This document shows, one piece after another, positions 6,532 through 13,378 of a stretch of DNA of 36,432 nt. This DNA is from Devosia sp. GTDB taxonomy: Bacteria > Pseudomonadota > Alphaproteobacteria > Rhizobiales > Devosiaceae. The translations under genes and the position numbers were made by a program. The stretch lies in the NCBI RefSeq assembly GCF_030689745.1, contig NZ_JAUYGL010000019.1, positions 1 to 36,432 of the forward strand, written 5' to 3'. The notes under the pieces are model-generated. The model saw only the letters and a list, made by a program, of their open reading frames with translations, was not told the origin of the DNA and did no database searches. Each line of letters begins with the position of its first letter. The stretch's first letter is position 1.

Positions 6532-8580
6532 ATGAACGCGCTCTTCGGCGACATCCCGGTCAATCCGGCCACGTGGCGTGAGACCCTCAAGGCCATGCCA
6601 TACCTGCCCATTACCCTGGTGGCGGTGGTCGGCCACATGATGCTCTTCGGCATGTTGACGCCGGTCATGGCCATCTATGCCCAGAGCTTTGCCGTCCCCG
6701 ACTGGCAGATCGGACTGATGATAACCGTCTTCGCCGCTGGCCGCCTCGCCGCCGACCTGCCAGCCGGCCATTTCGCCTCGCGCGTCGGCATCCGCCCATT
6801 GCTCGGCTTCGGCTTGCTGCTCTGCTCGCTCGGTGCCGTCCTCGGCGCCCTCGCGCCCAGCTACGCCATGCTGCTAACCGGCCGCGTCATGCAAGGCATC
6901 GGCTCGGGTCTGTTCATGACCGCCGCCATGATCTACCTGGCCCAGAACAGCGATCGCCGCAGTCGCGGCAAGGTCATGTCGATGTTCCAGGGCGCCACCC
7001 TCGTTGGCGGCGCCTTCGGTCCCAGCGTCGGCGGCCTCGCCGCCAATCTCTTTGGCCTGTCGGGTCCCTTCTGGGCCGCCGCTGTCATCGGTCTCGTTAC
7101 CGGCCTGCTGCCGTTGATCCTCTTCAAGGAGACCGCGAGCCAGCGCGACAACCCCCAGCAATCCGGATCGCGCGGCATGCTTGGTCTGCTGCTGATCCTG
7201 CCTTTCCTCTGCGTCCTGCTCGCCAATTTCGGGTTCTTTCTCACCCGCACCGCCGGACAGTGGCAGATGATCCCGCTGCTGGCAGACCAGCGCTATGCCA
7301 TCGGACCCGACCAGCTCGGCCTCGCCATGTCGCTTTCCGCCGTGGCTAATCTCGTCGCCTTGCCAGTCGCGGCCTATATCGTCGACCGCCTGCCGCGGGC
7401 TTCCATCATCGCCTTCTCGCTGCTCGCCACGGCCGCCGCCCTGGCCGGCATCGCCATGGCCGACAGCGCCGCAATGCTGTTCGCCGGCATGATCGCCATC
7501 GGCCTTGCGACCGGCATCGGCGGTCCCGCCATCGGCGCCTATGCAGTCGACGTCGTTCCGGCCCGCCAGCAGGGCTCGGCCATGGGCATGCTGCGCTTTG
7601 CCGGCGATCTGGGTTACCTCGTCGGGCCCCTTGCCATCGGCACCCTCGTCGATGTCGGCCAGCTTGGCTACGACGGCGGCCTCTTCATCAATGCCCTGCT
7701 TCTTGTTGCCTTCGGCGCCGTCTTCGTGCTCGGCGGACGGCGCCTGCTGATCACCCGACCCCACGAGCACACCCACCCCCTCGAACCTAGGAGACCTCTC
7801 ACCATGACGGACCGTATCTGGGACAAGTATCTGAGTGAAGAAGACAAGGCGGTTTTCGCCTCCTCGGGCTTTGGCTCGCTGGCCGAATGGGGCAAGCGCC
7901 CTGCCCTGCTGGTCATCGACGTCAACTACGCCTTCTGCGACGAGAAGCCGACGCCGATCCTGGAAAGCATCAAGAAGTGGCGCACCTCCTGCGGCGAATA
8001 TGCGTGGGAAGCCATGCCGGTGCTCGAAAAGCTCATCGACACCTGCCACGGCAAGGGCATCCCGGTGATCTATACCACCGGCACCCAGCGCGCTGACAAG
8101 TGGGACGCCGGCTCTTGGGCCTGGAAGAGTTCGCGCCGCAAGGACGAGGCCCATGCGACAGCACCCCTGCTCACCAGCGACGGGCTGGACGGCAATGAGA
8201 TCGTTGCCGAAATCGCACCCGGTCCGCGCGACATCGTCATCCACAAGCAGAAGCCCTCGGGCTTTGCCGGCACGCCCCTGGTCTCCTACCTGCAGCTGCT
8301 GGGCTGCGATAGCGTGATCGTCACTGGCACCACCACCTCTGGCTGCGTCCGCGCCACCGTGCTTGACGCCTTCTCGCTCAACTACCGCGTCACTGTGGTC
8401 GAAGACGGTTGCTTTGACCGTGCCCAGGCTAACCACGCCATCAACCTGTGCGACATGCATGCCAAATACGCCAACGTCATGCCGTCCGATGAAGTGATCA
8501 ACCACCTCAACGGCCTGAGCCAAGGCATGTACGACCTGCCTTCGGGTGCCGGTATGGAGCGTGTCGCCGCAGCCGAATAA
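6532..8580 (+). CDS. MFS transporter running in frame into an isochorismatase-family hydrolase (fusion or lost stop)
   Basis: One open frame of 682 residues. Residues 1 to about 405 are an MFS transporter (motif-A-like GHFASRVGIRPLL, MQGIGSG in segment 4, about 12 membrane segments). Residues 425-682 are a complete isochorismatase-like amidohydrolase. The joint (about 406-424, rich in His, Pro and Arg) shows no linker conservation I recognise. The sequence just before codon 425 is aggagacctctcacc then ATG, a textbook ribosome site, and a TAG sits one frame away at 7792-7794. Loss or gain of one base in the nearby C-rich run (acccaccccctcg) would separate the two genes. So this may be two coupled genes with an indel or sequencing error, or a real transporter-enzyme fusion with an internal start. 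It starts 3 nt after the previous MFS gene. Confidence 0.75.
   Translation: MNALFGDIPVNPATWRETLKAMPYLPITLVAVVGHMMLFGMLTPVMAIYAQSFAVPDWQIGLMITVFAAGRLAADLPAGHFASRVGIRPLLGFGLLLCSLGAVLGALAPSYAMLLTGRVMQGIGSGLFMTAAMIYLAQNSDRRSRGKVMSMFQGATLVGGAFGPSVGGLAANLFGLSGPFWAAAVIGLVTGLLPLILFKETASQRDNPQQSGSRGMLGLLLILPFLCVLLANFGFFLTRTAGQWQMIPLLADQRYAIGPDQLGLAMSLSAVANLVALPVAAYIVDRLPRASIIAFSLLATAAALAGIAMADSAAMLFAGMIAIGLATGIGGPAIGAYAVDVVPARQQGSAMGMLRFAGDLGYLVGPLAIGTLVDVGQLGYDGGLFINALLLVAFGAVFVLGGRRLLITRPHEHTHPLEPRRPLTMTDRIWDKYLSEEDKAVFASSGFGSLAEWGKRPALLVIDVNYAFCDEKPTPILESIKKWRTSCGEYAWEAMPVLEKLIDTCHGKGIPVIYTTGTQRADKWDAGSWAWKSSRRKDEAHATAPLLTSDGLDGNEIVAEIAPGPRDIVIHKQKPSGFAGTPLVSYLQLLGCDSVIVTGTTTSGCVRATVLDAFSLNYRVTVVEDGCFDRAQANHAINLCDMHAKYANVMPSDEVINHLNGLSQGMYDLPSGAGMERVAAAE
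7804..8580 (+). CDS. Isochorismatase-family amidohydrolase (own start inside the longer MFS frame)
   Basis: Cysteine hydrolase of 258 residues, of the family that includes nicotinamidase, N-carbamoylsarcosine amidase and ureidoacrylate hydrolase; it cleaves amide or carbamoyl bonds in the cytoplasm. The catalytic triad is visible: Asp39 in LLVIDVNYAF, Lys148 in HKQKPSGF, and the nucleophile Cys181 in TGTTTSGCVRAT. The N-terminal extension of about 30 residues and the TSGCVRAT box resemble the carbamoylsarcosine/maleamate amidase branch more than plain nicotinamidases, but the substrate is unknown. This ATG is favoured as an independent start because aggag lies 10 nt upstream. It is the last gene of the plus-strand operon and is followed by a strong hairpin at 8591. 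Confidence 0.85.
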   Translation: MTDRIWDKYLSEEDKAVFASSGFGSLAEWGKRPALLVIDVNYAFCDEKPTPILESIKKWRTSCGEYAWEAMPVLEKLIDTCHGKGIPVIYTTGTQRADKWDAGSWAWKSSRRKDEAHATAPLLTSDGLDGNEIVAEIAPGPRDIVIHKQKPSGFAGTPLVSYLQLLGCDSVIVTGTTTSGCVRATVLDAFSLNYRVTVVEDGCFDRAQANHAINLCDMHAKYANVMPSDEVINHLNGLSQGMYDLPSGAGMERVAAAE

Positions 8581-8742: not shown

Positions 8743-10071
8743 CTAATGAGACCACACGAAGCCTGGGATTGCCGGCAAGCGCAGGCGTTGGCGAAGAGTG
8801 GGCTGGTGGTCCACTGCAAACAGCGTTCTTTCAGCGAGTTCGGGAATTACAAAGTCGATAAACCGTGCCAGATCGCCTGGCATGACCGGGGCCATGACGT
8901 TGAAACCGTCAGCAGCGCCGTTGTCGAACCAGTCCTGCATTGTATCTGCGATGTCCGCTCCGGTGCCCACTGCAAGCAAATGGCCCCTTCCGCTGGCCAA
9001 ACGCATCAGCAGTTGCCGCAAGCTCAGTCTGTCGCGCCGTGCGATGCCGACCAGAACCGCGACGCGGCTTTGGCTCGACTGGCTCTTTGCCGCATTGGCA
9101 CCGATGGTTTCGGGCAACGTGTCATCGAGGTCGGCTTGCGAAAGATCGTCGCCCAAAAACTCTGAGAGTTTGGCCAGGACGTGTTCTACGACCATGAAGC
9201 CATTCATCTGCGCCAGCCGATCTTCGGCCTGATGTCTCGTGGGCGCTGCGATGGGTACGATGCCGGGATAGATCATGAGGCTTTCTGGCGCTCGACCATG
9301 GCGGGCGGCGCGCCCTTTCATGTCCCGGTAAAATGACTGGGCCTCGATGAGGTCAGACTGCACAGTGAAAACCATATCGGCATAACGGGCGGCGAAATCG
9401 CGTCCGGCTTCGGAGGCGCCGGCTTGCGCGAGGATCGGGCGACCCTGCGGCGAGCGTGGGACGTTGAGCGGTCCGCGGCTGCGCACGAAAGGACCGTCGT
9501 GATCTACGCATCGTACTTTTAGAGGATCGAGATAGATGCCCGTCTGCTTGTCGGCGATGCGGGCATCTATCTGCCAGGAGTCCCAAAGGGCCAGCACGGC
9601 TTCCGTGACGTCGGCAGCGCGGTCATAGCGATCGCCATGATCGGGCATGGCATCGAGGCCGAAATTATAGGCTTCGAGCGGATTGGATGAGGTGACGATA
9701 TTCCATCCTGCCCGTCCTTTGGTGATGTGATCGAGCGATGCGAAGCGCCGGGCCAGATGAAACGGATGATCAAAGCTCGTCGAGGCCGTGCCGATCAGCC
9801 CGATGCGGGTGGTCACCGCCGCAAGGGCAGACAGAATGACCAGCGGATCCATGGCATCGGACAGGTGCCGGTCGGCACTTTGCTGGAGGGCCAGTACGTC
9901 GCCGAGGAACAGGGCGTCAAAGCCCCCATCCTCGGCGCGACGTGCAATATCGATCCAATAGTCGAGGTCGGTCGAGGCAACGGCATTGCTCTCGGGCATG
10001 CGCCAGCCGGCCTCATGGCTGCCGAGGCCGAAGATGACAGCGTTGAGCCCCATGCGCCGGCTTTTCGTCAT
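8743..10071 (-). CDS. LLM-class flavin-dependent monooxygenase (NtaA/SnaA/DszA group)
   Basis: Predicted FMNH2-dependent monooxygenase of the bacterial luciferase fold, 442 residues, the normal length of the nitrilotriacetate/dibenzothiophene-sulfone monooxygenase group. Seen are the N-terminal barrel strand (MGLNAVIFGLG), AEDGGFDALFLGD, SFDHPFHLARRFASLDH and the group-typical GRAGWNIVTS segment near residue 118. It would need a flavin reductase partner, and none is encoded beside it. The ATG overlaps the TGA of the binding-protein gene (ATGA), so it is the last member of the TPP-riboswitch operon. This suggests it oxidises an imported thiamine-related compound to a usable pyrimidine, which is inference. 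The substrate is unknown. Confidence 0.93.
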   Translation of the reverse strand: MTKSRRMGLNAVIFGLGSHEAGWRMPESNAVASTDLDYWIDIARRAEDGGFDALFLGDVLALQQSADRHLSDAMDPLVILSALAAVTTRIGLIGTASTSFDHPFHLARRFASLDHITKGRAGWNIVTSSNPLEAYNFGLDAMPDHGDRYDRAADVTEAVLALWDSWQIDARIADKQTGIYLDPLKVRCVDHDGPFVRSRGPLNVPRSPQGRPILAQAGASEAGRDFAARYADMVFTVQSDLIEAQSFYRDMKGRAARHGRAPESLMIYPGIVPIAAPTRHQAEDRLAQMNGFMVVEHVLAKLSEFLGDDLSQADLDDTLPETIGANAAKSQSSQSRVAVLVGIARRDRLSLRQLLMRLASGRGHLLAVGTGADIADTMQDWFDNGAADGFNVMAPVMPGDLARFIDFVIPELAERTLFAVDHQPTLRQRLRLPAIPGFVWSH

Positions 10072-11075
10072 GGTGCAGAGTCGAGGTAAGCGTTGGAGTA
10101 GTAGGTGGTGAAGTCGGGCTTCACCGCTACAGCCGCACCATTGCCGTCCTTGAGAATGTGGGTCTCGAACAGGAAGGTGCCGACCGCATCCATCTTGGCG
10201 GGATCGATGGTGCCGATGGCGCCATTTTCTGCCTTCAGATAGTGGCCGTCGATCAGGGCCTGCAGCGATGCCCGCACGAAGTCCCGATCAAGTGCTGCAT
10301 CGGCATTGCCTGTCACCAGAATACCGGCGGCCTCGTCTGGGTTGGCGACGGCGTATTCATAGCCGCGCTGGCTGGCGGCGATGAACACTTTGGCCGTTTC
10401 GGCATTGTCGGCGAGATAGGCGCTACTGGTGCCGATGAAATTGGTGTGCTGGTCGGGTACGCCGAAATCGGCATAGCGGAAAGCGCGTTGCGCCGGGCCG
10501 TCGCGCTCTGCTTTGACGCCTTCCCAAGTATAGACTTCGAGGGTGAAATCGACCGCGCCATTGGCCAGGGCTTCGTAGGCGGAGGTGCCGAGGGTGACGG
10601 TTTCGAAATCGCCCGTCCCGCCGTCATGGCGGATAATCGTTCCGATCAACGCATTTTCCCATGCGCTGCCGAAGCCGCCATAGACTTTGCCATCAAGGTC
10701 CCTTGGAGACTGGATATCCTGCCGATCGGCGTTGAAGACCAGGCGGCCGGTTTCGGTCTGGACCAGGGCATAGGTCGCAACGAGGTCGGCACCCGCCGCG
10801 CGCTGGGTAAAAAGGCCAATCGAGCCCAGTATCCCGAAATCTGCCACATGATTGGCAACCAGTGTACCGGCGGAAGTATCCGAATAAGGCAGGATTTCAA
10901 CGTCCAGACCGGCCTCGTCATAGAAGCCTTTGGCCTGAGCCACGAAAAGCCCGATATGGTTCGTGTTGGGCGTCCAATCCAAGGCGACAGTAACGGGAAT
11001 GGGTTGGGCAAGGGCCGGCGTTGCGGCTAGGCCGATTGCGAGGCCGAGCGCCATTATGGTGCGGGAAAGCGGCAT
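10068..11075 (-). CDS. ThiY-like periplasmic binding protein for a thiamine pyrimidine precursor
   Basis: Solute-binding protein of the NMT1/THI5-like family, 335 residues, with a signal peptide (hydrophobic 6-22, cleavage after ALA at about 23). The family core DWTPNTNHIGLFVAQAKG lies just after the mature N terminus and matches ThiY-type proteins, which bind N-formyl-aminopyrimidine or HMP-like precursors. A YEALANGAVDF segment lies in the second lobe. It is placed 2 nt after the ATPase stop and overlaps the monooxygenase start by 4 nt. Together with the riboswitch and the YkoF-like gene, a role in HMP or pyrimidine precursor uptake is well supported, although the exact ligand is not. Confidence 0.9.
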   Translation of the reverse strand: MPLSRTIMALGLAIGLAATPALAQPIPVTVALDWTPNTNHIGLFVAQAKGFYDEAGLDVEILPYSDTSAGTLVANHVADFGILGSIGLFTQRAAGADLVATYALVQTETGRLVFNADRQDIQSPRDLDGKVYGGFGSAWENALIGTIIRHDGGTGDFETVTLGTSAYEALANGAVDFTLEVYTWEGVKAERDGPAQRAFRYADFGVPDQHTNFIGTSSAYLADNAETAKVFIAASQRGYEYAVANPDEAAGILVTGNADAALDRDFVRASLQALIDGHYLKAENGAIGTIDPAKMDAVGTFLFETHILKDGNGAAVAVKPDFTTYYSNAYLDSAP

Positions 11076-11077
11076 GA

Positions 11078-11827
11078 TTAGTTCTCCGGATGTAATAGGG
11101 TCTGCAAGATTTCAGCTTCGATCGCCGCAAGAGCGGGCGATCCGACGCCTTGGCGGGGATGATCGCGCGGGACACGAAACTGATGGACGACATGGGCCGG
11201 CCGGGATGACAGCACATGGATGCGGTCGGACAGCAGCACCGCTTCGCGAACATCATGGGTGATGAGCAACACGGTCCAGTGGTGCCGGCTCCACATCTTG
11301 GCAAGCCAGCGCTGCATCTGCGTGCGGGTCAGCGCGTCGAGAGCGCCGAAGGGCTCATCGAGCAGCAGCATGGGGCGCTGTTGCACCACCGTGCGCAGCA
11401 AGGCGGCGCGCTGGCGCATGCCGCCCGATAGCTGGGCAGGATAATGCTGTTCAAAACCCGCCAGTCCAAACTCGGCGAAAAGCGGCGCAACTTCCGCACG
11501 TGCAGCCTCGCGGCTCAGGCCGGCAACTTCGAGGCCGAGCGTGGTATTGTCGATGATCCGGCGCCACGGCATCAGCGCATCGCGTTGCGGCATGAAGGCG
11601 AAGCGATCGCGCTTCGGCACGAGCGGCGCACCATTAAGCAGCATGGTACCCATGTCAGGGTCCGTCGCGCCAATGAGCATTTGGAGGATTGTCGATTTGC
11701 CAGCCCCCGAGGGGCCGAGGATCGAGACGAACTCACCGGGCAGCACCGTCAGGCTGATATCGGTGAGAACGTCGACAGCGCCGAAGCTTTTTCGCAAGCG
11801 GTGGAGTTCAAGGCGTGGCCGGCTCAT
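11078..11827 (-). CDS. ABC transporter ATP-binding protein (ThiZ-like)
   Basis: ATPase of the nitrate/taurine/pyrimidine-type importer, 249 residues from the ATG at 11827. That start is chosen over upstream codons because it overlaps the permease stop as ATGA and begins just before the domain (MSRPRLELHRLRKSFG). Motifs seen are Walker A GPSGAGKS, Q loop MPQRDALMPWR, signature LSGGMRQR, Walker B LLLDEPFGALD and switch LLITHDV. It would power the permease encoded upstream for the ThiY-like binding protein. Confidence 0.93.
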   Translation of the reverse strand: MSRPRLELHRLRKSFGAVDVLTDISLTVLPGEFVSILGPSGAGKSTILQMLIGATDPDMGTMLLNGAPLVPKRDRFAFMPQRDALMPWRRIIDNTTLGLEVAGLSREAARAEVAPLFAEFGLAGFEQHYPAQLSGGMRQRAALLRTVVQQRPMLLLDEPFGALDALTRTQMQRWLAKMWSRHHWTVLLITHDVREAVLLSDRIHVLSSRPAHVVHQFRVPRDHPRQGVGSPALAAIEAEILQTLLHPEN

Positions 11828-12621
11828 CGGGTAGGCTCCGAAAGACGCAGCCAGGGCATCGAGGCGCGCTGAATCAAAACGGTCGCCCCGAATAGCAGCA
11901 GCGTCAGCGTTGAGCTGACGAACACTGCTGCAAGCACCAGGTCGGGTCGGAAATTGTTCTTGGCATTGAGGATATAAATGCCGAGGCCCCTTGCGGCGCC
12001 CGCATATTCGGCGAATATCGCACCAACCACCGCGTAGGTGATCGAGATGCACAGGCCAGCGAAGAAGTAGGGCCGGGCCGATGGCAGGCGCGCCATGATA
12101 AAAATGCGCCAACGAGAGGCGCCCATAGAGGCCAACAGTTCCGACAAGTCCCGGTCCGTCGATTCATAACCCTGCGCCAGCGCGACCAGCATAGGAAAGA
12201 ACGTTACCAGCGCAACCAGCACGATCTTTGGAGTCAGGCCGAAGCCGAACCACAGGACGATCAGCGGCGCGATGGCCACCAGAGGCAGGGTCTGGGTAAT
12301 GATGAAGACGGGAAATAGCGCCCTTCGGAGCGGCCTGAAAAAATCGATCAATGTCGAGAACATGAACGCCGCGCTGAGCGACGAGGCGAACCCAAATAGT
12401 GTCGCCTGAAGCGTCGCCAGCGTGTGTCCGGCCAGTGCCTCACGGTTCTCGAAGCCTTGGGCGAGAACGCGCGATGGCGCGGGCAGTGCTGTTGGGGAAA
12501 TGCCCGAGAGCTGCACATAGGCTTCCCAGCCCAAGACGAGCGCCGACACCGACGCCACAGCTGGGCCGGCATGGTTGAAAATGCGCGCGAACAGGCGCGA
12601 CAAGGCGGAGGCGTTCAACAT
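11824..12621 (-). CDS. ABC transporter permease (ThiX-like)
   Basis: Inner-membrane permease of the BPD_transp_1 family, 265 residues, about six membrane segments. The EAA-type loop is visible at YESTDRDLSELLASMGASRW, followed by the RLPSARPYFFAGL stretch typical of SsuC/ThiX permeases. It lies 15 nt downstream of the YkoF-like gene and is coupled by a 4-nt overlap to the ATPase. No unusual features. Confidence 0.92.
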   Translation of the reverse strand: MLNASALSRLFARIFNHAGPAVASVSALVLGWEAYVQLSGISPTALPAPSRVLAQGFENREALAGHTLATLQATLFGFASSLSAAFMFSTLIDFFRPLRRALFPVFIITQTLPLVAIAPLIVLWFGFGLTPKIVLVALVTFFPMLVALAQGYESTDRDLSELLASMGASRWRIFIMARLPSARPYFFAGLCISITYAVVGAIFAEYAGAARGLGIYILNAKNNFRPDLVLAAVFVSSTLTLLLFGATVLIQRASMPWLRLSEPTR

Positions 12622-12635
12622 GGATCGACCTTCCG

Positions 12636-13244
12636 TCAGCGGGCGCTGGGACTATTGGCCGAAACCGTCAGATCGATCGTGACATGGCCCTCGGGCGGTC
12701 CGAAGTGGCAGAAGGCCTGCTCCAGGGTGGCGAACAGAGCCCCTGTATCGCCCTTGAGCTTGGTCGCGAAATGCTTGGATTTATCGAACGTGCCCGACTG
12801 CTTGAGGAAGTCGATACAGCCATAGATTTCGTCCATATGGTTGCCCTGCCCCAGCACGTAAAGCGAGAGCTGGCCCACGGCAAACACGTCCATATCCGGG
12901 GCCTTACGCACGGCGGAAAGGGCGCTTTCCTGCCGTTCGGCAAGGGGGGCGAGCGGGCCATCAAAGTGCGATGAGGTGCAAATAGCGTCGTCCGACTCGC
13001 CCGGGCAGCCGCGCGAAATGGTGGCCGAGAACACGCAATGCGTGCCGGTACGGGCCGCAGCGCTGAAGAGATCGCGCATGGCCCGGAACAGCACTTCAGG
13101 CGGACCCACCAGCAGCGTCGAGACGTCGTCGGTCTCGATGCGCAGCTGGTCGCGATAGGGATCGAGCGCACCCAATGCGCTCATGATAACGTCGACGAAA
13201 TCGTCGGCCATGGGATAAAGGGAAATCTGTGCGCCAGAAAACAT
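12636..13244 (-). CDS. YkoF-like thiamine/HMP-binding protein
   Basis: Protein of 202 residues resembling Bacillus YkoF, a cytoplasmic two-repeat protein that binds thiamine or HMP. The N-terminal repeat begins GAQISLYPMADDFVDVI and the second begins near VFAVGQLSLYVLGQGNHMDEI (about residues 119-139), matching the tandem-repeat arrangement. It has no signal peptide. It is the first gene of the operon and its start codon lies only about 7 nt after the riboswitch; the ribosome site gagg (13251-13254) falls in the 3' strand of the riboswitch. That placement fits control of translation by TPP. Confidence 0.88.
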   Translation of the reverse strand: MFSGAQISLYPMADDFVDVIMSALGALDPYRDQLRIETDDVSTLLVGPPEVLFRAMRDLFSAAARTGTHCVFSATISRGCPGESDDAICTSSHFDGPLAPLAERQESALSAVRKAPDMDVFAVGQLSLYVLGQGNHMDEIYGCIDFLKQSGTFDKSKHFATKLKGDTGALFATLEQAFCHFGPPEGHVTIDLTVSANSPSAR

Positions 13245-13247
13245 CGA

Positions 13248-13340
13248 CCGCCTCGCTCCGCTGGTATTACCCAGATCAGCTATAGGGTCCGAAGGCTTCC
13301 CGCCCTCATCTCAGCCCCGACCTACGGAGCACCCCTGTGG
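13248..13340 (-). promoter_or_regulatory. TPP riboswitch (THI element)
   Basis: On the minus strand the conserved blocks occur in order: ggggtgctcc, gctgagatgaggg, a gcgggaagccttcgg hairpin region, accc, ctgatctgggtaatacc and cagcgga. TGAGA and CTGATCTGG-TAATACCAGCG are diagnostic of the thiamine pyrophosphate aptamer. It lies directly upstream of the YkoF-like gene. The outer limits are approximate. Binding of TPP should hide the gagg ribosome site at its 3' end and switch the five-gene operon off when thiamine is plentiful. Confidence 0.95.
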
Positions 13341-13348
13341 ATGGGCAC

Positions 13349-13378
13349 ACCATAGGCGTTGACCGTTGTTGAATGCAA
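13349..13378 (-). promoter_or_regulatory. Candidate promoter of the TPP-controlled operon
   Basis: Minus-strand TTGCAT (13378-13373) and TATGGT (13354-13349) are 18 nt apart, a few bases upstream of the riboswitch. The predicted RNA start would be near 13342, so the transcript would begin with the aptamer. The hexamers are moderate matches. Confidence 0.5.

What the first reader, a model, noticed from the sequence alone, without database searches (positions are those of the whole stretch)
8743..13378. LLM flavin monooxygenase as the last gene of a TPP-riboswitch operon
The riboswitch, YkoF-like protein and ThiXYZ-like importer are a known thiamine-precursor uptake set. The added gene is an NtaA/DszA-type monooxygenase, joined by a 4-nt overlap to the binding-protein gene. 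Characterised pyrimidine salvage steps of this pathway are hydrolytic deformylation and deamination, not oxygenation. The layout suggests an uncharacterised oxidative route turning an imported thiamine breakdown product (for example an oxidised or sulfur-bearing form) into HMP. No flavin reductase is beside it.
Basis: partly seen in the sequence, partly recalled or inferred. Interest (0 to 1): 0.75.

Follow-up and report, generated by a model that had tools for sequence, protein, structure and literature searches.

The report
Vitamin B1 uptake operon with monooxygenase
In some Devosia bacteria a vitamin B1-sensing RNA controls a B1 importer together with a flavin-dependent oxygenase of unknown substrate; since most of these bacteria seem unable to build B1 from its parts, the enzyme probably acts on an imported, modified form of whole B1.

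Summary
A TPP riboswitch (58.6 bits) precedes ykoF-thiX-thiZ-thiY and an NtaA/DmoA-type LLM monooxygenase (TIGR03860, 502 bits) that overlaps thiY by 4 nt. It is not unique to this genome: 136 Devosiaceae genomes held 19 orthologous loci in 18 genomes; 17 follow thiY and 15 show the TPP riboswitch. None of 20 LLM loci (43-48% identical) outside the family shows one upstream. In D. naphthalenivorans an operon copy lost most of ykoF, all of thiX and thiZ and nearly all of thiY, yet keeps the riboswitch, reading frame, 4-nt overlap and an intact LLM.

Of the 18 LLM genomes 16 show no ThiC, no ThiD and no ThiE above cut-off, and none has TenA, so free HMP should be useless to them. The binding protein is closest to a thiamin-bound structure. 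I therefore favour oxidative removal of a substituent from an imported whole-thiamine derivative. The substrate is unproven.

The LLM is an accessory: 31 of 47 YkoF genomes lack it, 3 of 19 copies are frame-broken, and no ortholog appeared outside Devosiaceae in the samples searched.

The parts
13235..13346 (-). TPP riboswitch aptamer (RF00059); its 3' end runs into the ykoF start codon
   Evidence: cmscan 58.6 bits, full length; own-genome search
12636..13244 (-). ykoF, thiamin/HMP-binding protein homologue (PF07615), 202 aa
   Evidence: Pfam E 4.7e-34; B. subtilis YkoF structures 1s99/1s7h, 97 and 94 bits
11824..12621 (-). thiX, ABC permease (PF00528), 265 aa
   Evidence: same place in orthologous operons
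11078..11827 (-). thiZ, ABC ATPase (PF00005), 249 aa; start inferred from orthologs
   Evidence: orthologs of 249 aa, e.g. L046
10068..11075 (-). thiY, periplasmic binding protein (PF09084 NMT1/THI5-like), 335 aa, with a signal-peptide-like N-terminus
   Evidence: best PDB match 4nmy 130.7 bits, then FAMP-binding 3ix1 90 bits; 4nmy is titled thiamin-bound
8743..10071 (-). LLM flavin-dependent monooxygenase, NtaA/DmoA family, 442 aa, start overlaps the thiY stop by 4 nt
   Evidence: TIGR03860 502.2 bits, cut-off 279.7; closest structures CmoJ/YtnJ, BdsA, NTA monooxygenase

Best explanation
A TPP-repressed operon imports thiamine-type compounds (YkoF, ThiX, ThiZ, ThiY). Its last gene, translated in coupling with thiY, makes an FMNH2-dependent LLM monooxygenase. 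Shown by sequence: riboswitch, gene order, overlap, conservation, purifying selection, and keeping of the LLM under the riboswitch when the rest of an operon copy was deleted. Inferred: the LLM acts in the cytoplasm on an imported compound that still contains the whole thiamine skeleton, because most carriers seem unable to assemble thiamine from pyrimidine and thiazole. By the chemistry of its family it would oxidise a carbon next to N, S or the ring, so that a substituent falls off and thiamine is released for phosphorylation. One chemically sensible example is a 2-(1-hydroxyalkyl)thiamine, whose oxidation would give a 2-acylthiamine that hydrolyses to thiamine (recalled chemistry). S-alkylated ring-opened thiamine is another. 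FMNH2 would come from a general flavin reductase encoded elsewhere.
For: TPP-ykoF-thiXZY-LLM at 14 loci, TPP-LLM at one more. Pairwise distances of LLM and ThiY correlate as strongly (r 0.949) as those of ThiY and ThiX (0.925) over 13 loci. LLM dN/dS 0.06-0.16 in nine comparisons with the window. In G029/D. naphthalenivorans the riboswitch, a 49-codon in-frame ykoF-thiY remnant and the 4-nt overlap remain in front of an intact LLM, whose dN/dS to its two nearest orthologs is 0.09; a second, LLM-less riboswitch-ykoF-thiXZY operon lies elsewhere in that genome. ThiC, ThiD and ThiE above cut-off in only 2 of 18 carriers, TenA in none. ThiY is closest to a thiamin-bound binding protein. The own genome has a thiamin pyrophosphokinase next to TPP-thiB. 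The fold is closest to CmoJ, BdsA, NTA monooxygenase and RcaE, enzymes of oxidative C-S or C-N cleavage (functions partly recalled).
Against: No substrate was tested. The window's own genome has ThiC, ThiE and ThiD and could use HMP. The operon works without the LLM in many relatives (31 of 47 YkoF genomes), and the LLM is frame-broken at 3 of 19 loci. At two loci it sits outside TPP control: behind a resident SDR gene in G122, and in G017 within a divergent cluster beside an SfnB-like sulfur-acquisition gene. Loci of relatives with ABC genes next to 44-47% LLMs and no riboswitch (L206, L062) show that LLM plus ABC importer is a common layout with other substrates. No natural thiamine derivative needing such an enzyme is known to me. 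A ThiE-like paralogue below cut-off is present in 17 of 18 carriers; its activity is unknown.
Confidence: 0.4

Rival explanations
1. One reading: the LLM oxidises an imported thiamine breakdown product (for example FAMP or AmMP, alpha-hydroxylated at the bridge carbon to the aldehyde, then reduced) to HMP, replacing YlmB and TenA.
For: TIGR03860 enzymes do oxidative N-dealkylation (recalled; NTA and EDTA monooxygenase are in the match list). TenA is missing in the carriers and over cut-off in 2 of 136 family genomes. ThiY's second-best solved relative binds FAMP. The own genome has ThiC, ThiE and ThiD, so HMP is usable there.
Against: 16 of 18 carriers show no ThiD and no ThiE above cut-off, so HMP could not become thiamine. 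The one gene found next to the LLM that could reduce an aldehyde (the SDR in G122) is a resident gene present in 13 of 13 genomes of that genus.
Confidence: 0.2
2. Detoxification: the importer, switched on under thiamine shortage, also lets in toxic thiamine or pyrimidine analogues, and the LLM inactivates them.
For: Patchy gain, loss and breakage. In D. naphthalenivorans the gene after the LLM, overlapping it by 4 nt, is a Bcr/CflA-type efflux-family MFS (212.8 bits, cut-off 200.9).
Against: Long co-inheritance with the importer and strong purifying selection would need a constant toxin; no analogue-producer context was examined.
Confidence: 0.15
3. Sulfur scavenging: the LLM frees sulfur from a sulfonate, sulfide or thiazole compound brought in by an Ssu-like importer, and the TPP link only reflects that thiamine contains sulfur.
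For: LLMs beside ABC genes without riboswitch in relatives (L206, L062); an SfnB-like gene (256 bits, below cut-off 430.9) and two more TIGR03860-type LLMs around the G017 copy; best match CmoJ/YtnJ, a sulfur enzyme (recalled).
Against: 15 of 19 loci are under a TPP riboswitch, which shuts the operon down on TPP, not on sulfate. ThiY is closer to thiamin- and FAMP-binding proteins than to SsuA. The LLM scores 52 bits on the alkanesulfonate monooxygenase model, cut-off 518.
Confidence: 0.15

Closest known systems
TPP-riboswitch ykoF-thiXYZ uptake operon
   Same: Riboswitch, YkoF (B1/HMP-binding), ThiXYZ-type importer with an NMT1/THI5-like binding protein; described as pyrimidine(/B1) transport in PMC10881298 (passages).
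   Different: Carries a monooxygenase as last gene. Most carriers seem unable to use HMP, so whole thiamine is the more likely cargo.
CmoJ/YtnJ (6ask, 1yw1), TIGR03860
   Same: Closest solved relative by sequence (324 bits) and fold (E 4.8e-38, 39% identity).
   Different: Only about 39% identical; different operon; no CmoJ substrate has been tested here.
RcaE riboflavin lyase (5w4y)
   Same: Same family and fold (229 bits); an LLM that attacks a vitamin: PMC12746152 describes oxidative removal of ribose from riboflavin to lumichrome as the first step of its pathway (abstract start in a search listing; that RcaE does this is recalled).
   Different: Acts in vitamin catabolism; here the gene is expected to be expressed at low TPP, which speaks against catabolism.
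TenA/YlmB salvage of AmMP and FAMP
   Same: Known route from imported thiamine breakdown products to HMP (PMC10470507, passages).
   Different: Hydrolytic; TenA was not found in the carriers; YlmB was not searched for.

Membership tests
TPP riboswitch RF00059 | Match over the curated score, full length | tested here: met
   58.6 bits, gathering 54.3, positions 1-105 of 105
ThiXYZ/YkoF thiamine-precursor importer | NMT1/THI5-like binding protein, permease, ATPase and YkoF in one TPP-controlled operon | tested here: met
ThiXYZ/YkoF thiamine-precursor importer | Cargo is a pyrimidine precursor rather than thiamine | tested here: inconclusive
   Best binding-protein match is thiamin-bound (4nmy), second binds FAMP (3ix1); binding not measured
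NtaA/DmoA LLM family (TIGR03860) | Score over the curated cut-off | tested here: met
   502.2 against 279.7 bits
SsuD alkanesulfonate monooxygenase (TIGR03565) | Score over the curated cut-off | tested here: not met
   52 against 518.2 bits
RutA pyrimidine monooxygenase (TIGR03612) | Score over the curated cut-off | tested here: not met
   58.8 against 498.3 bits
HMP salvage pathway | ThiD and ThiE present to turn HMP into thiamine phosphate | tested here: not met
   Above cut-off in 2 of 18 carriers only, the window's genome and G035
HMP salvage pathway (TenA branch) | TenA present | tested here: not met
   0 of 18 carriers; the single PF03070 hit is PqqC, 365 bits
CmoJ/YtnJ | Acts on the CmoJ substrate | not testable with these tools
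   needs an enzyme assay

The most novel reading that the evidence does not exclude
The enzyme is a first oxidative vitamin B1 repair or unmasking enzyme: thiamine-requiring Devosia import substituted thiamine (for example a C2-hydroxyalkyl or S-alkyl form released by other organisms) and an FMN monooxygenase takes the substituent off to regenerate thiamine.
Probability: 0.2. Interest if true: 0.75.

Novelty: new variant of a known kind. Interest (0 to 1): 0.5.

Why it matters
The thiamine salvage enzymes that act on breakdown products in the papers seen here are hydrolytic and feed HMP. A TPP-controlled oxygenase in bacteria that seem unable to use HMP would mean that environmental B1 exists in further masked forms which some microbes can unlock. 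The D. naphthalenivorans operon remnant makes the question testable with one small set of genes: find what this enzyme lets a thiamine-requiring strain grow on.

Tried and rejected
Rejected: (1) SDR as dedicated partner of the LLM in G122; the SDR is a resident gene in 13 of 13 genomes of that genus. (2) TenA in G029; it is PqqC. (3) ThiE-like proteins as proof of thiamine synthesis: they score 26-59 bits against a cut-off of 145.1. The one scanned (L172) gets 145.8 bits on the NCBI model PRK06512 (thiamine phosphate synthase), cut-off 218. Six were aligned; they lack the motifs I recall for ThiE (in which the two canonical ThiE were not picked up by my pattern, so they are not in that alignment). 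(4) A first control with only 1.5 kb flanks was too short to show a riboswitch at the head of a five-gene operon; it was repeated with about 6 kb.

Led nowhere: the ThiY model (mean pLDDT 45) is too poor for structural claims; its fold search was used for entry titles only. The LLM model (mean pLDDT 74.5) gives the fold but no substrate. The riboswitch folded alone has z 0.26, so energy says nothing. The paper search on hydroxyethylthiamine listed nothing relevant among 8 of 1,215 papers. No paper on the Devosia case was found among 8 papers listed, judged from the listing only. The tree of ThiY (39 rows) needs 9 changes of LLM state and has many weak branches, so the numbers of gains and losses are unsure.
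Full report
What is there. The minus strand of the window holds a TPP riboswitch (13235-13346, 58.6 bits) followed by ykoF, thiX, thiZ, thiY and an LLM monooxygenase. The aptamer runs into the ykoF start codon. The LLM is a member of TIGR03860 (502.2 bits, cut-off 279.7) and not of the SsuD or RutA models (52 and 58.8 bits; cut-offs 518.2 and 498.3). The genome is a Devosia by its nearest named relatives (six of seven loci are Devosia, 79-84% identical). It has two further TPP riboswitch matches: one in front of a thiamine synthesis operon with thiC, thiE and thiD and one, slightly under the gathering score, in front of thiB. A thiamin pyrophosphokinase gene lies beside that thiB.

Is the linkage conserved? 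A search of 136 Devosiaceae genomes gave 19 loci of this ortholog group in 18 genomes (58% identity or more; frame-broken and contig-cut copies counted). With flanks: 14 loci have riboswitch, ykoF, thiX, thiZ, thiY and LLM; one has riboswitch and LLM without importer genes (G029); two are cut by contig ends (G070, G035); two lack the riboswitch even at E 0.1 (G122 and G017). Seventeen of 19 follow thiY. A 4-nt overlap with the upstream frame is seen at 18 of 19. Three copies are frame-broken: G035, G037, G073. YkoF occurs in 47 of the 136 genomes at E 1e-20; 31 of those have no LLM ortholog. Of 28 fetched YkoF loci without LLM, 24 have matches to all three of thiX, thiZ and thiY (L111 with thiY in two pieces), three show none of the three or only a weak match (L122, L124, L129) and one is cut (L128). 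Of these loci, 14 were scanned for the riboswitch and 14 had it. So the riboswitch-importer core is older or more widespread than the LLM, and the LLM is an accessory.

Controls and spread. The 15 ortholog sequences used form one group apart from 26 other LLMs (SH-aLRT 100). No further ortholog appeared in samples of 397 genomes of the order (E 1e-115; best non-Devosiaceae 49% identity), 385 of the class (best 473 bits against 877 for the window's own) and 398 of the phylum (best 476 bits). These are even samples with few candidates scored per genome, so rare orthologs elsewhere are not excluded. The pattern scan of genome contigs found six Devosia loci and one 42% match. Of 20 LLM loci outside the family with about 6 kb upstream (one with 1.5 kb), none has a TPP riboswitch. 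Some do stand beside ABC importer genes, e.g. L206, so ABC plus LLM is a common layout by itself.

Evidence that the LLM matters to the operon. Distances between the 13 importer-linked copies correlate at r 0.949 for LLM and ThiY, against 0.925 for ThiY and ThiX; 0 of 5000 permutations reach this. dN/dS of the LLM against the window is 0.06-0.16 in nine comparisons, similar to ThiY (0.08-0.11) and YkoF (0.10-0.14). In G029, whose contig has the same length as that of D. naphthalenivorans CM5-1, the riboswitch (55.6 bits) is followed by a 49-codon frame: the start of ykoF joined in frame to the last codons of thiY, ending in the usual 4-nt overlap with the LLM. The LLM there is intact, with dN/dS 0.09 against its two nearest orthologs. 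An LLM-less riboswitch-ykoF-thiXZY operon is elsewhere in that genome. The simplest account is a deletion in a second operon copy that spared riboswitch, frame, coupling and LLM. The next gene, overlapping the LLM by 4 nt, is a Bcr/CflA-type MFS.

What it cannot easily be. In 22 genomes (18 LLM carriers and 4 with the LLM-less operon) ThiC, ThiE over cut-off and ThiD over cut-off were found only in the window's genome and G035. ThiE-like proteins under cut-off occur in 21 of 22, and sub-cut-off kinase hits (20-60 bits; cut-off 205) in many. G070 is 62% complete, so its absences mean little; the other carriers are listed as 93-100% complete. TenA was found in none of the 18 carriers: the one PF03070 hit is PqqC. 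Across the family TIGR04306 was over cut-off in 2 of 136. If ThiD is truly missing, free HMP cannot be turned into thiamine, and an enzyme conserved in these organisms should not have HMP as its useful product. The binding protein's closest solved relative is titled thiamin-bound (4nmy, 130.7 bits), the next binds FAMP (3ix1, 90 bits).

Mechanism. Best reading: an importer for thiamine and thiamine derivatives, with a flavin monooxygenase that frees thiamine from a derivative by oxidising the carbon that holds a substituent. Shown: regulation layout, coupling, conservation, family. Inferred: cytoplasmic reaction, whole-thiamine substrate, dealkylation or deacylation chemistry. The family's solved members include CmoJ, BdsA, NTA and EDTA monooxygenases, DmoA and RcaE; their reactions are recalled except that riboflavin degradation is described as starting by oxidative removal of ribose (PMC12746152, abstract start in listing). 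Against it: no substrate tested; the window's own genome can make thiamine; two loci without TPP control, one of them beside an SfnB-like gene and two further LLMs. Rivals are HMP production, detoxification and sulfur scavenging, as listed.

Literature. Full-text searches for a TPP riboswitch together with flavin-dependent or luciferase-like or nitrilotriacetate monooxygenase terms gave 0 papers; broader searches returned 129 and 732 papers, of which only the 20 listed each were seen, all with 0 occurrences of the LLM term. The regulon survey PMC3766115 (passages) has 0 occurrences of 'monooxygenase' and of 'luciferase' in its main text. The library is open-access only, so this does not prove that the linkage is unpublished. 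Known salvage (TenA, YlmB) is taken from passages of PMC10470507, ThiXYZ and YkoF roles from passages of PMC10881298.

Verdict. Observation confirmed, co-regulation well supported, HMP product unlikely in most carriers, substrate open.

Noticed in passing
window 6532-8580 (+): One 682-aa frame reads an MFS transporter joined to an isochorismatase-type hydrolase, right after another MFS gene and convergent with the thiamine operon.
   Followed up: no
L057 2936-10561 (G017): Divergent YkoF-thiXZY-LLM cluster without a TPP riboswitch, with two further TIGR03860-type LLM frames and an SfnB-like gene around it: possibly the same importer and enzyme reused under other control.
   Followed up: partly
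L001 1501-1862 (G000 C61): A cobalamin riboswitch and a TPP riboswitch lie back to back between a nitroreductase-like (BluB-like, by eye) gene and the thiC operon.
   Followed up: no
L009, L058, L059: Three frame-broken copies of the LLM, broken at different or differently written places, beside intact importer genes where these are visible.
   Followed up: partly
L130, L131 (G109, G124): The two Devosiaceae genomes with TenA over cut-off share another operon with a binding protein only 31-33% identical to this ThiY.
   Followed up: no
L162, L164, L172, L181: A ThiE-like gene downstream of a fructose-bisphosphate-aldolase-like gene (by eye) in the four loci looked at, well below the ThiE cut-off.
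   Followed up: partly
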